Source: Deltaproteobacteria bacterium (GTDB taxonomy: Bacteria; Desulfobacterota; DSM-4660; Desulfatiglandales; HGW-15). From it: 5,171 nt of DNA. Below the pieces are notes generated by a model. That model saw only the letters and a list, made by a program, of their open reading frames with translations, ran no database searches and had not been told where the DNA came from. The DNA is taken from assembly GCA_030671095.1 (NCBI GenBank), contig DAOVAK010000249.1, positions 1 to 5,171 on the forward strand. Direction: 5' to 3'. Shown in pieces: positions 88 to 4,504 of the stretch (position 1 is its first letter; every line of letters begins with the position of its first letter). The position numbers were made by a program, and so were the translations under genes.

Positions 88-1371
88 TTGAAGGCCGTGA
101 GAGTGCTCCTTATTTCTGCAAATACGGAACCGATCAACATGCCCATCTTACCCATGGGATTAGGGGCTGTGGCGGCTGCAACACGAAAGGCGGGCCACGA
201 AGTGGAACTTCTTGATCTCATGAGGGTGAATGATACGGGCCCTGCAATAAAGGAAGCCGTAAAGAGATTTCCTCCTCGTGTGATCGGCATTGGGGTGAGG
301 AACATTGATGATCAGAACATGGAAGTCCCTATCTTCTTGTTGGATCAGGTCCAGGAGGTGATTTCTCATTGCAGAAGTTTCTCAAGGGCTCCTATTGTCC
401 TGGGAGGAGCAGGCTACAGCATATTCCCGGAAAGTGCCCTGTCGTATTTGGGTGCTGACATGGGGATTCAGGGTGAGGGGGAGATGGCGTTTCCAGCCCT
501 GCTGGAACGCGTGGAACAGGGAGCAGATCTTTCCAAAGCCGCCGGCCTCTATCTGCCCCGCCTTGGCCTCCAGGGAAAGAGAATGTTTGAAAAAGACCTG
601 GATATATTCCCTTTCCCAGATGTTAGCCTTTGGCCTGCCTATCTTGCCAAGGATCAGGGCCTGTGGGTGCCCATACAGACCAGGAGAGGATGCCCCCTGG
701 ATTGCAGCTACTGTTCTACGGCAACCATTGAAGGTCGTATCATCCGCAAATTCAGCCCCCAAAGGGTTATAAATGTCATTACTCGCTATTTTGAGGCTGG
801 ATTTGAGAGATTCTTTTTCGTGGACAATACATTTAATATGCCTCGATCGTATGCCAGGGAGATCTGTGGTGCGCTGATCGCCAGGGGAATGGGCATATCC
901 TGGGGATGTATTGTTTACCCTGGTACACTCGATGAAGACTTGGCAAAGGACATGGCGAGAGCGGGTTGCACGCAGGTGAGTGTGGGATTCGAAAGTGGCT
1001 GTGACCGAATGCTGAGAAATATGAATAAGAAATTTGGTGTTGAGGCTGTACGCCGGAGTTGTGCAATGCTCGGGGATCAAGGCATTCGCAGGATGGGTTT
1101 TTTGCTCCTGGGAGGGCCCGGTGAAACAAGGGAGTCGGTGGAAGAGAGCCTGACCTTTGTTGATTCCCTCCAGCTGGAGGCCGTCAAGATCACGGTCGGC
1201 ATCAGAATTTACCCGGGCACGCCGCTGGCTGAGACGGCCTTGCGGGAAGGCGTTATTTCGGGGCAGGACGATCTTCTTTTTCCAAGTTTTTATATTCAAA
1301 GGGGGCTTGAGGGTTGGTTGCAGGAGACCGTGCGGCGTTGGATGATGGAGCACCCCAATTGGATGACGTAA
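88..1371 (+). CDS. B12-binding domain radical SAM protein, substrate unknown
   Basis: This is a 427-residue iron-sulfur enzyme of the cobalamin-binding radical SAM superfamily, probably cytoplasmic. Residues 1-140 form a Rossmann-like B12-binding domain starting KAVRVLLISAN, with the loop GGAGYSIFP near 106 and the typical QGEGE near 128-132. I see no DxHxxG motif, so any cobalamin would bind without the classical histidine ligand; this is common in the superfamily. The radical SAM barrel covers about 190-400, with CPLDCSYC supplying the three [4Fe-4S] cysteines C202, C206 and C209. Further barrel landmarks are FFFVDNTFN (242-250), SVGFESG (298-304), GFLLLGGPGE (337-346) and RIYPGTPL (373-380). 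The C-terminus (EHPNWMT) looks complete. Family members do methylations, ring rearrangements and lipid or cofactor chemistry; the substrate cannot be read here. The start is uncertain: TTG at 88 gives the usual domain start, while GTG at 103 has GAAGG at 90-94 eight bases upstream. Confidence 0.9.
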   Translation: MKAVRVLLISANTEPINMPILPMGLGAVAAATRKAGHEVELLDLMRVNDTGPAIKEAVKRFPPRVIGIGVRNIDDQNMEVPIFLLDQVQEVISHCRSFSRAPIVLGGAGYSIFPESALSYLGADMGIQGEGEMAFPALLERVEQGADLSKAAGLYLPRLGLQGKRMFEKDLDIFPFPDVSLWPAYLAKDQGLWVPIQTRRGCPLDCSYCSTATIEGRIIRKFSPQRVINVITRYFEAGFERFFFVDNTFNMPRSYAREICGALIARGMGISWGCIVYPGTLDEDLAKDMARAGCTQVSVGFESGCDRMLRNMNKKFGVEAVRRSCAMLGDQGIRRMGFLLLGGPGETRESVEESLTFVDSLQLEAVKITVGIRIYPGTPLAETALREGVISGQDDLLFPSFYIQRGLEGWLQETVRRWMMEHPNWMT

Positions 1372-1404: not shown

Positions 1405-1609
1405 GCACAGAGCAAAGTGCCCCGGTGGAATAGGGTCCAGACGTGTCGGGCCCCAGTTGAACAGAAGATAGGTTGAAGATAGCTGATGGCCTCTGGCCAT
1501 CAATTTACAAGGTGGGGTATCCATTCAACCCCGGTAGGATCTTCCGGACCTACCTCGGTTAAATAGGTTTCACCCCAGTTGTATGACTTCAAGATTCAAT
1601 GGGGTAAAC
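1405..1609 (+). other. Gene-free spacer with dense inverted repeats; possible structured RNA or leader
   Basis: The 262-bp spacer 1372-1633 has no convincing gene. Stems visible on the + strand are: GCAC/GTGC (1405-1408 with 1417-1420); GGGTCC/GGGCCC (1433-1438 with 1448-1453, one G-U pair); GGTTGAA/TTCAACC (1471-1477 with 1524-1530), enclosing a perfect 8-bp hairpin TGATGGCC-TCT-GGCCATCA (1484-1502); GGTAGG/CCTACC (1533-1538 with 1549-1554); and GTTT-c-ACCCCA-g-TTG (1567-1581) with CAATGGGGTAAAC (1597-1609). All can form together, and the last ends 12 nt before the Shine-Dalgarno of the next gene. The 1484-1502 hairpin might instead end the radical SAM transcript, but it lacks a U-tract. It matches no riboswitch or housekeeping RNA I recognise. 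The pairings are seen in the sequence; a functional RNA is inference. Confidence 0.35.
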
Positions 1610-1621
1610 ATGGCGTAAAAG

Positions 1622-1629
1622 AAGGAGAG
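1622..1629 (+). promoter_or_regulatory. Strong ribosome binding site of the DUF2892-like gene
   Basis: AAGGAGAG lies with its GGAG core (1624-1627) six bases before the ATG at 1634. It is one of the two best Shine-Dalgarno sequences in the window. It is the main reason to accept the very short gene that follows. Confidence 0.75.
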
Positions 1630-1633
1630 AATT

Positions 1634-1792
1634 ATGGCAATCAACAAAAATGTGGCCAAGGTTGAAAGGGTCATTCGAATTATCCTGGGGATAATTCTTA
1701 TCTTTTGGGGCTTTTCGTTGACTGGCTTTTGGAGGCCGGCATCAATTGTCGTGGGTGTTCTACTATTGGCGACCGCTTTTATTGGATACTGA
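1634..1792 (+). CDS. Small two-helix membrane protein, DUF2892 (YgaP-like) family; possible selenoprotein
   Basis: Read conventionally, this is 52 residues starting MAINKNVAKVERVIRIILG and ending TAFIGY. The N-terminal NKNV..VERVIRIILG is the DUF2892 signature. It is followed by two hydrophobic helices (about 13-30 and 36-51) joined by a short TGFWRP turn, so it should be an inner-membrane protein. Known members run to about 60-70 residues and usually continue after helix 2 with a G-aromatic-Cys-Pro-Leu-Tyr segment; here the TGA at 1790-1792 falls at that cysteine. The frame continues TGA-CTC-TGA, then 11 sense codons to TAA at 1834, which would make 66 residues with two selenocysteines. Alternatively it is a naturally short member or has lost its tail. 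Its role is unknown; related domains accompany rhodaneses and sulfur metabolism. It stands alone, 262 bp after the radical SAM gene and convergent with the MFS gene. The gene call is firm; its 3' end is open. Confidence 0.8.
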   Translation: MAINKNVAKVERVIRIILGIILIFWGFSLTGFWRPASIVVGVLLLATAFIGY

Positions 1793-1834
1793 CTCTGAAA
1801 ATCAGTCCTGCTGAAGGTCTTCAGCAAAAAATAA
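1790..1834 (+). other. Candidate UGA-recoded C-terminal extension of the DUF2892-like protein
   Basis: In frame after GY are TGA (1790-1792), CTC, TGA (1796-1798), AAA and further sense codons to TAA at 1832-1834. With both UGAs read as selenocysteine the tail is U-L-U-KSVLLKVFSKK. The basic, amphipathic end is plausible for a protein whose N-terminus is also basic, and total length becomes 66, normal for the family. The first UGA sits at the usual conserved cysteine. Readthrough is inference and depends on selA/selB/selC elsewhere in the genome. Confidence 0.5.
1810..1825 (+). promoter_or_regulatory. SECIS-like hairpin downstream of two in-frame UGAs
   Basis: GCTGAAGGTCTTCAGC is a perfect inverted repeat. 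It can be drawn as GCUGA-AGGUCU-UCAGC, with a hexaloop identical to the one I know from the E. coli fdhF SECIS. It begins exactly 11 nt after the second UGA (1799-1809 intervene), the spacing known for fdhF, and 17 nt after the first UGA. It lacks the bulged U of the E. coli element. It is followed by AAAAAATAA rather than a U-tract, so it does not look like an intrinsic terminator. A smaller hairpin (GACT 1791-1794 with AGTC 1804-1807) overlaps the second UGA. Confidence 0.5.
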
Positions 1835-3379: not shown

Positions 3380-4504
3380 ATGACGAGGCAGAAACAGAAA
3401 ACAATGCTTATCCAGGAAGAACTGGAACGCCGTATCCTTCATGGCCTTGTGTGCGAATGGGAAAATGCCCTGGAGACCTTGAACCCACCTGACAAGGAGA
3501 AGTTGCGGAAACCCTTCTTCAGTCTACGGAATATGAAAGGGAAATGGGGATATTGGTCCGGTGAAAACAATGAGATATGCCTGAGTCGAGAGCTTGTCCT
3601 TGATCATCCATGGCACACTATCTGTGAAATTCTTCTCCATGAAATGGCCCATCAGTATGCCGAGCAAGCCTTAGCTGGCCATGATGAATCCCCCCACGGG
3701 CCTAAGTTCAAGAAGGCCTGTCACTTGCTCCGAGCCAATCCCAAGGCCTCAGGGAATTATAAGGCTTTGGATGAACGGATTTTACAATATTCACCAAGCC
3801 CTGAGGACAAGATCATGACCAGGGTCAAAAAACTCACGGCCCTGGCACAAAGTCAAAATCAACATGAAGCAGAATCGGCCATGGCCAAGGCCCACCAGCT
3901 GATCGCAAAGTATAACATAGATATCTTGGCCCGAGATGAAGATCGGCATTTTGTGAGCATTTTTGTTGGCCATCCAGCCCTGCGGCATTTCAGGGAAGAT
4001 TATCATCTTGCGGGCCTGTTACAGGATTTTTATTTTGTCTATGGGATCTGGGTGCCGGCCTATGTCCTCAATAAAGGGAAGATGGGAAGTGTATTGGAAA
4101 TCAGTGGAACTATCCAAAATGTAAGAATAGCCAGCTACGTTCATGATTTTGTCACACGGTTTATTGATTCCCAGTGGCAGAGATACAACAAGAAAAAGGG
4201 TCTAAATCGATATCGCAAGACGGATTTTGCCGTGGGAATTGTAAAGGGGTTTCGCTCAAAGCTGAAATTGCAAAATACGGAAAGAAAGAGGCATAAAGGT
4301 AAACCGGGGCTAATAAAGATGGAAGACCCATTGCTGCAAGAACATGTGGATTATAGATATCCGTACACCGCGAGTGTAAGGGGCCAGGTGCTGAGAGGAC
4401 ATAAGGATGTGGTGGAAGATGGAATAAGCATTGGTAAGAAGCTGGTCATTTCTAAAGGGATCACCGAGAAGGGGACGAGCAGAAAACTTTTGGTTGGCAA
4501 ATAA
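3380..4504 (+). CDS. SprT-like zinc metallopeptidase domain fused to a DUF2786 domain
   Basis: The protein has 374 residues and no signal peptide or membrane helix, so it is cytoplasmic. Residues about 12-135 are SprT-like: the strand GYWSGENNEICLSREL (57-72) precedes HEMAH (87-91), with H87 and H91 as zinc ligands and E88 catalytic, and HGPKFKKAC (106-114) supplies the third ligand H106. The C-terminal zinc ribbon of classical SprT is not seen. Residues about 142-181 (MTRVKKLTALA, then NQHEAESAMAKAHQLIAKYNI) match DUF2786. The rest to 374 is a Lys/Arg-rich alpha/beta region of unknown function, rich in basic residues near 268-310, which could bind nucleic acid. The related eukaryotic protein Spartan cleaves DNA-protein crosslinks; a similar role here is inference. 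ATG 3380 is the first ATG after an in-frame stop at 3362; no good Shine-Dalgarno is visible, and ATG 3404 is an alternative. It stands alone between 215-bp and 135-bp spacers. Confidence 0.85.
   Translation: MTRQKQKTMLIQEELERRILHGLVCEWENALETLNPPDKEKLRKPFFSLRNMKGKWGYWSGENNEICLSRELVLDHPWHTICEILLHEMAHQYAEQALAGHDESPHGPKFKKACHLLRANPKASGNYKALDERILQYSPSPEDKIMTRVKKLTALAQSQNQHEAESAMAKAHQLIAKYNIDILARDEDRHFVSIFVGHPALRHFREDYHLAGLLQDFYFVYGIWVPAYVLNKGKMGSVLEISGTIQNVRIASYVHDFVTRFIDSQWQRYNKKKGLNRYRKTDFAVGIVKGFRSKLKLQNTERKRHKGKPGLIKMEDPLLQEHVDYRYPYTASVRGQVLRGHKDVVEDGISIGKKLVISKGITEKGTSRKLLVGK

What the first reader, a model, noticed from the sequence alone, without database searches (positions are those of the whole stretch)
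1634..1834. Candidate small membrane selenoprotein: DUF2892 protein with in-frame UGA-Leu-UGA and a SECIS-like hairpin
Seen directly: a well-translated 52-codon frame ends FIGY-TGA, then CTC-TGA, then 11 sense codons and TAA. A perfect inverted repeat GCTGAAGGTCTTCAGC starts exactly 11 nt after the second TGA. Established knowledge: bacterial SECIS elements lie just 3' of the UGA inside the coding region; the E. coli fdhF upper stem-loop begins 11 nt after its UGA and has an AGGUCU loop with an essential GU, the same hexaloop that can be drawn here. DUF2892 proteins normally have a Gly-aromatic-Cys at this point and are about 60-70 residues long; readthrough gives 66. Inference: one hairpin serves both UGAs (11 and 17 nt away), giving a U-x-U redox tail at the membrane face. 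Two Sec codons in so short a protein would be unusual. The missing bulged U and the second UGA are weak points.
Basis: partly seen in the sequence, partly recalled or inferred. Interest (0 to 1): 0.85.

Follow-up and report, generated by a model that had tools for sequence, protein, structure and literature searches.

The report
Tiny membrane protein with two selenocysteines
A very small bacterial membrane protein, filed in databases as ending at a stop signal, almost certainly reads through two stop signals as the rare amino acid selenocysteine, and it belongs to a family that the lists we could check do not contain.

Summary
A 52-codon YgaP-like_TM (PF11127) frame is followed by TGA (1790-1792), CTC, TGA (1796-1798), 11 sense codons and TAA, with a perfect hairpin at 1809-1826. 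The hairpin alone is not beyond chance; conservation makes the case. Thirteen further genomes carry TGA-xxx-TGA at the same place and the tail K-(G/S/A)-x-x-LKVF-(S/G)-K. The 19 hairpin bases are 97% identical between loci, against 53% upstream and 27% downstream, and synonymous sites are frozen there. The hairpin meets the published bacterial SECIS model from both UGAs (17 and 23 nt away). SelB is in 13 of 13 of these genomes; SelD carries an in-frame TGA in 9. The first UGA aligns with Cys in 55 of 55 relatives without UGA. One database relative has Cys-Pro-Cys and the same tail. I conclude: a new two-Sec (U-x-U) selenoprotein family, absent from a 2026 list of 119 families and from NCBIfam. 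Its function (membrane-face redox or sulfane-sulfur transfer) is inferred, and selenium incorporation is unproven.

The parts
1622..1629 (+). putative Shine-Dalgarno sequence AAGGAGAG
   Evidence: read from the sequence; not tested
1634..1834 (+). proposed full coding sequence, 66 residues with two Sec (U53, U55), stop TAA 1832-1834
   Evidence: frame and tail conserved in 14 loci
1634..1789 (+). YgaP-like_TM (PF11127) core with two predicted transmembrane helices (model helices residues 9-28 and 33-50)
   Evidence: Pfam 41 bits without and 51.3 bits with the read-through tail (C for U), cut-off 25.3; low-confidence model, mean pLDDT 65
1790..1792 (+). first in-frame UGA, proposed Sec53
   Evidence: UGA in 14 of 14 UxU loci; Cys in 55 of 55 relatives without UGA; aligns with E. 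coli YgaP C159
1796..1798 (+). second in-frame UGA, proposed Sec55
   Evidence: UGA in 14 of 14 UxU loci; M, L, P, A, V or I but never Cys in 55 relatives without UGA; Cys in P0020 (CPC + same tail)
1799..1831 (+). positively charged C-terminal tail KSVLLKVFSKK
   Evidence: K56, L60, K61, V62, F63 and K65 invariant in 14 of 14; a like tail in 19 of 120 listed proteins that carry sense codons at both sites
1809..1826 (+). SECIS-like hairpin UGCUGAA-GGUC-UUCAGCA, loop 17 nt after UGA2 and 23 nt after UGA1
   Evidence: 98 of 98 pair cells standard in 14 loci; 97% mean pairwise identity over 19 nt; fold -8.4 kcal/mol

Best explanation
The gene at 1634-1834 encodes a 66-residue, two-helix inner-membrane selenoprotein. 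SelB carrying Sec-tRNA(Sec), bound to the single hairpin at 1809-1826, recodes both UGA codons (1790 and 1796), giving a U-x-U motif just after the second membrane helix and before a short basic tail. This decoding step rests on conservation and on the Sec genes of related genomes; it is not shown by experiment. By the positive-inside rule and the topology of E. coli YgaP, the U-x-U lies at the cytoplasmic face of the membrane (inferred). The most likely role is a membrane-bound selenium redox centre, a selenenylsulfide or diselenide that takes up sulfane sulfur or electrons at the spot where E. coli YgaP has C159, next to its thiocyanate site (inferred; my confidence in this role alone is about 0.4, and the confidence given below is for the two-Sec decoding).
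For: (1) 13 other genomes have TGA-xxx-TGA and the same tail, although their parts upstream of the UGA are only 33-63% identical to the window's in protein. (2) RNA-level constraint: same-amino-acid codon identity is 0.92 for codons +6..+11 against 0.41 upstream; nucleotide identity 97% in the hairpin, 53% upstream, 27% after it; codon +6 is always NTG although its residue is M, L or V. (3) Protein-level constraint: K56 uses AAG and AAA, and G57 uses GGA, GGT and GGG, so the residue is kept while the codon varies. (4) The hairpin pairs in 98 of 98 cells. It meets the bacterial SECIS model quoted in PMC13188914 (loop 3-9 nt, G in the first two loop positions, 16-37 nt from UGA, energy at or below -7.5): spacing 17 and 23 nt, loop GGUC, 13 of 14 at or below -7.5 as rounded. 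(5) SelB over cut-off in 13 of 13 UxU genomes. SelD in 10 of 13, with an in-frame TGA in 9 of those. tRNA-Sec at 73-78 bits in 4 of 5 UxU genomes tested. (6) Cys at the first site in 55 of 55 relatives without UGA. A Cys-Pro-Cys relative with the full tail, P0020.
Against: The window's own genome is not held, so its sel genes are unseen. The second site is Cys in 0 of 55 relatives without UGA (M 23, L 13, P 6, A 5, V 5, I 3). Of 120 listed protein relatives, 19 carry sense codons at both sites, and only one of these is Cys-x-Cys (pairs CC 1, CG 2, WW 1, RW 2, LR 4, RR 1, RL 1, LY 2, LL 3, FG 2), so selenium looks dispensable or lost in that subclade; their DNA was not seen. The hairpin shows no two-sided compensatory changes and is not unusually stable in the window. 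G002 has only a weak 77-nt tRNA-Sec match, and SelD was not found at E 1e-40 in G002, G802 and G819. The structure model is poor and found no significant fold match. No gene neighbour shared by many loci points to a function.
Confidence: 0.91

Rival explanations
1. The first UGA is a true stop: a 52-residue DUF2892 protein, with a conserved 3' hairpin that acts as a terminator, processing or stability element.
For: Gene callers stop there: 100 of 120 listed relatives end at exactly this point. The hairpin is conserved.
Against: The tail keeps its frame and its amino acids while synonymous codons vary (K56, G57). Nineteen relatives with sense codons continue into a like tail. The Cys present in 55 of 55 relatives without UGA would be lost. 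No T-run directly follows the hairpin on either strand.
Confidence: 0.04
2. Only one of the two UGAs is decoded as Sec; the other works as a stop or as a selenium-dependent switch, giving 52-, 54- and 66-residue products.
For: Recoding at a UGA competes with termination (30-40% recoding in vivo, abstract of PMC4513850 seen in the listing), so doubly read product may be a minority. The hairpin lies at different distances from the two UGAs (17 and 23 nt). The second site is never Cys in 55 relatives without UGA.
Against: Both UGAs are kept in 14 of 14 loci with the tail downstream of both. Both distances fit the SECIS model. UxxU families with two Sec are listed. P0020 has Cys at both sites.
Confidence: 0.07
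3. It is a selenoprotein as proposed, but the U-x-U binds soft metal ions (Hg, Cd, Cu) in a sequestration or transport role instead of doing redox or sulfur transfer.
For: SELENOP is reported to bind Cd through CXU, UXC or UXU (PMC11818150, one passage seen). CPC motifs move soft metals in P1B ATPases (recalled).
Against: The first position matches the Cys that lies near the thiocyanate site of the sulfurtransferase YgaP (PMC4730233 passages; alignment). One search found no gene shared by many loci beside it, so no metal-resistance gene either.
Confidence: 0.2
4. UGA is reassigned to a standard amino acid (Trp or Gly) in these genomes.
For: P0023 reads W-P-W at the two sites, as if called with a code in which TGA is Trp.
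Against: SelB is present in 13 of 13 genomes and SelD with a single TGA in 9. SelB genes and the window's neighbour genes are open without TGA as a sense codon. The hairpin beside the UGAs would be unexplained.
Confidence: 0.01

Closest known systems
E. coli YgaP (inner-membrane sulfurtransferase), transmembrane part, PF11127
   Same: Two-helix membrane domain; C159 at the end of the second helix aligns with U53; C159 reported near the thiocyanate site (PMC4730233 passages).
   Different: YgaP has an N-terminal rhodanese domain and a single Cys followed by GMARLLDK; no Sec. The window protein has no rhodanese domain and has U-x-U.
Other Cys-type DUF2892 / PF11127 proteins, e.g. the MEQYIRAIAG...CPMENILEKVFK group
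   Same: Similar length and core; Cys at the first site; the tail of that group aligns without gaps to the window's from C/U53 on.
   Different: No UGA and no second Sec; second site M, L, P, A, V or I.
Bacterial selenoproteins with two Sec (e.g. UxxU Prx-like, UxxU metal-binding protein, UxxU FmdB family)
   Same: Two closely spaced Sec in one small motif (PMC13188914 Table 1, read).
   Different: None of the 119 listed families is YgaP/DUF2892 or has a U-x-U motif.
E. coli fdhF SECIS
   Same: Hairpin 11 nt after the UGA and an AGGUCU that can be drawn as the loop (fdhF details recalled, not tested).
   Different: No bulged U in the stem of any of 14 loci; predicted loop is GGUC on a 7-bp stem in the window.

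Membership tests
Bacterial selenoprotein | In-frame UGA where homologues have Cys | tested here: met
   U53: Cys in 55 of 55 relatives without UGA. U55: Cys in 0 of those 55; Cys in P0020.
Bacterial selenoprotein | SECIS hairpin 3' of the UGA (loop 3-9 nt with early G, stem 4-16 bp, 16-37 nt away, energy at or below -7.5) | tested here: met
   Window: 7 bp, GGUC, 17 and 23 nt, -8.4 kcal/mol; model quoted from PMC13188914. 13 of 14 loci meet the energy limit as rounded (L002 is -7.3).
Bacterial selenoprotein | UGA and downstream frame conserved across species | tested here: met
   14 of 14 loci.
Bacterial selenoprotein | Sec machinery (SelB, tRNA-Sec, SelD) in the same genome | tested here: inconclusive
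   Window's genome not held. Relatives: SelB 13 of 13, SelD 10 of 13, tRNA-Sec clear in 4 of 5 tested. SelA not searched.
Bacterial selenoprotein | Selenium in the protein | not testable with these tools
   needs 75Se labelling or mass spectrometry
PF11127 YgaP-like_TM (DUF2892) | Score over the family cut-off | tested here: met
   41 bits (52 aa) and 51.3 bits (66 aa, C for U), cut-off 25.3.
Named selenoprotein family in NCBIfam 20.0 or in the 2026 list of 119 | Match to a model or a listed family | tested here: not met
   No NCBIfam match at E 0.001; no YgaP/DUF2892 or U-x-U entry in Table 1.
YgaP sulfurtransferase | Cytosolic rhodanese domain | tested here: not met
   Only PF11127 found in the window protein.

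The most novel reading that the evidence does not exclude
A minimal membrane machine in which two selenocysteines, inserted by one SECIS, form a U-x-U centre at the cytoplasmic end of a dimeric two-helix bundle and pass sulfane sulfur, selenium or electrons across or along the membrane: an overlooked branch of anaerobic sulfur/selenium physiology that gene callers cut off at the active site.
Probability: 0.35. Interest if true: 0.87.

Novelty: new variant of a known kind. Interest (0 to 1): 0.74.

Why it matters
It adds a selenoprotein family with a motif (U-x-U) missing from the current inventory, in a protein so small that the two Sec residues and the signal that inserts them fill its last 14 codons. 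Of 120 database relatives listed, 100 are cut at the place of the first UGA (the TGA is verified in DNA for 8 of them), so the likely active-site residues are missing from their annotation. The closely spaced pair of UGAs under one hairpin is a compact natural system for asking how SelB reads two UGAs in a row, and the subclade with sense codons at both sites is a natural experiment in losing selenium.

Tried and rejected
Tried without result: Rfam scan of the window (4 matches, all below their gathering scores); viral contig scan with the UGA-hairpin pattern (0 matches); fold search with the model (no match at E 0.001; model mean pLDDT 65); PDB sequence search (one match at E 0.26); conserved gene neighbourhood. 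One search found no cluster shared by many loci: cluster 0 (5 loci) is the antisense frame of the gene itself, cluster 1 adjoins it in 3 of 14 loci, cluster 2 (a PPIase in the window) is downstream in the window and L002, and clusters 3 to 6 join two loci each. Covariation: no two-sided changes, so covariation gives no support. The tree used 52 short columns and 88 rows, of which I kept only about a third of the proteins that end at the site; many forks are unresolved, so I use it only to say that Cys relatives fall on one side (SH-aLRT 87) and that 17 of the 19 sense-codon rows share a fork with the UxU row L051 (SH-aLRT 99). Rejected: terminator (no T-run directly after the hairpin), plain 52-residue protein, UGA reassignment.

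Counts and drops: one search found 333 proteins and listed 120; my classification covers those 120, including the window's own P0002. The codon statistics use all 14 UxU loci. A first count of Cys relatives left out four near-copies and picked six rows with a pattern that demanded a Cys, so I recounted without that: all 49 matches without TGA, one (L036) and five (L052-L056), 55 in all. One of them (G067) was reported with a TAA inside the match; it lies before the start codon.

Full report
Observation. The sequence is as described: a YgaP-like_TM frame from ATG 1634, TGA 1790, CTC, TGA 1796, eleven codons and TAA 1832. The perfect hairpin spans 1809-1826. Such a hairpin is not rare in this window, and its fold is ordinary in energy, so the single sequence proves little.

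Relatives in DNA. A scan of one genome per species for close relatives gave three loci: two recorded as Deltaproteobacteria and one as Desulfobacterales. All three continue through TGA-xxx-TGA into the same tail. Whole-genome searches that read through stops added ten. In the class of G002, 2 of 389 genomes had two TGAs inside the match (G002 itself and G198). In the family of G002, 2 of 22 (the same two). In the order of G003, 2 of 3. In the phylum of G003, 10 of 395. In the phylum of G002, 11 of 395, ten of them the same genomes. In the order and the class of G001 only G001 itself, 1 of 85 each. In all, 13 genomes plus the window, so the family is spread over the phylum but sparse. All 14 have UGA at both codons, a fixed spacing, and K-(G/S/A)-x-x-LKVF-(S/G)-K after them. 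The part upstream of the UGAs is 33-63% identical to the window's, and 44% on average among all pairs. The tail ends at TAA or TAG, except in L046, where a third TGA follows directly after ...KVFSKK.

Two layers of constraint. Across 14 loci, pairs with the same amino acid use the same codon in 0.41 of cases upstream and 0.92 for codons +6 to +11 (by columns, Mann-Whitney p 0.0006). Leu CTG, Lys AAG and Phe TTC are used 14 of 14 times and Val GTC 13 of 14, and codon +6 is always NTG although it encodes Met, Leu or Val. The RNA is therefore held fixed. At K56 and G57, outside the hairpin, the amino acid is held (G in 11 of 14) while codons vary, so the tail is also translated. After the tail, identity falls to 0.27.

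SECIS. PMC13188914 (passages) gives the bacterial model: loop of 3-9 nt with a G in the first two places, stem of 4-16 bp, 16-37 nt from UGA to loop, energy at or below -7.5. The hairpin has a GGUC loop, a 7-bp stem, 17 nt from UGA2 and 23 nt from UGA1; 13 of 14 loci meet the energy limit as rounded. In some of these genomes' own selD genes the predicted hairpin loop lies 20 nt after the UGA (L067, L068 and L071), between the two distances seen here. The three changes seen in the stem keep the pair as a wobble.

Machinery. SelB is over its cut-off in 13 of 13 UxU genomes. SelD is in 10 of 13 at E 1e-40, of which 9 have one in-frame TGA, the tenth match (G198) lacking the N-terminal part. tRNA-Sec is clear (73-78 bits) in G001, G003, G198 and G477, and weak in G002; the other 8 UxU genomes were not tested. 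G105, in the family of G002, has SelB and a Cys relative without the tail. SelA was not searched.

Cys relatives. The first UGA aligns with a Cys found in 55 of 55 relatives without UGA; the second site is Met 23, Leu 13, Pro 6, Ala 5, Val 5, Ile 3 there. One Cys subfamily (CPMENILEKVFK) aligns without a gap to the tail from that Cys on. In a protein database of 5.8 billion sequences, 333 relatives were found; of the 120 listed, 100 end exactly before U53, 1 ends after C-P, and 19 carry sense codons and continue into a like tail. Eight of the 100 are gene-called versions of loci whose DNA was read here, all TGA-xxx-TGA. For the remaining 92 the stop codon was not seen. P0020 reads C-P-C. The other 18 sense rows have G, R, W, L, F or Y at one or both sites, which speaks against a strict need for selenium in that subclade; W-P-W in P0023 may be a gene call with another genetic code.

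Function. The N-terminus and the tail carry net positive charge in 14 of 14, and the model, of low confidence, gives helices 9-28, 33-50 and 54-63. E. coli YgaP C159 aligns with U53. Spin-label work places C159 at the C-terminus of the second helix and, citing earlier NMR, near the thiocyanate site (PMC4730233, passages). I infer a cytoplasmic-face selenium centre for sulfane-sulfur or electron transfer. Soft-metal binding is the main rival (PMC11818150, one passage). No gene neighbour shared by many loci helps.

Novelty. Searches of full texts for selenoprotein with DUF2892, selenoprotein with YgaP, and selenocysteine with DUF2892 gave 0 papers; selenoprotein with 'UxU motif' gave one review, where the passage is about SELENOP. 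Table 1 of PMC13188914 (119 families; section 7, parts 1 and 2 of 3 read) holds neither this family nor this motif, NCBIfam has no match, and the passages seen of the deep-Sep paper PMC12013277 name nine new families without this one. Papers outside the held library were not searched.

Noticed in passing
P0020-P0033, P0036, P0045, P0050, P0060, P0114: Relatives, mostly next to L051 in the tree, have sense codons at both Sec sites, mostly not Cys (L, R, G, W, F, Y), yet keep the tail: loss of selenium with the protein kept, or gene calls with other codes.
   Followed up: partly
L046 (G634:C14:6015-6206, minus strand): The full-length frame meets a third TGA directly after ...KVFSKK, apparently a real stop, so read-through and termination at UGA would occur in one short mRNA.
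   Followed up: no
window 1484-1502: Perfect hairpin TGATGGCCTCTGGCCATCA in the gap upstream of the gene, of unknown role.
   Followed up: no
window 3380-4504, plus strand: Protein joining a SprT-like metallopeptidase with DUF2786 and DUF7168.
   Followed up: no
window 109-1371, plus strand: B12-binding radical SAM protein; best NCBIfam match is rSAM_ladder_B12 at 291 bits, below its cut-off of 360.
   Followed up: no
G392: Clear tRNA-Sec (73.8 bits) but no SelB over the cut-off, in a Cys-type relative's genome; possibly an incomplete bin.
   Followed up: no
P0006, P0011, P0076, P0077 and others: Members of this family carry source names such as 'sulfite exporter TauE/SafE' and 'predicted phage tail protein', which look like misannotation.
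   Followed up: no
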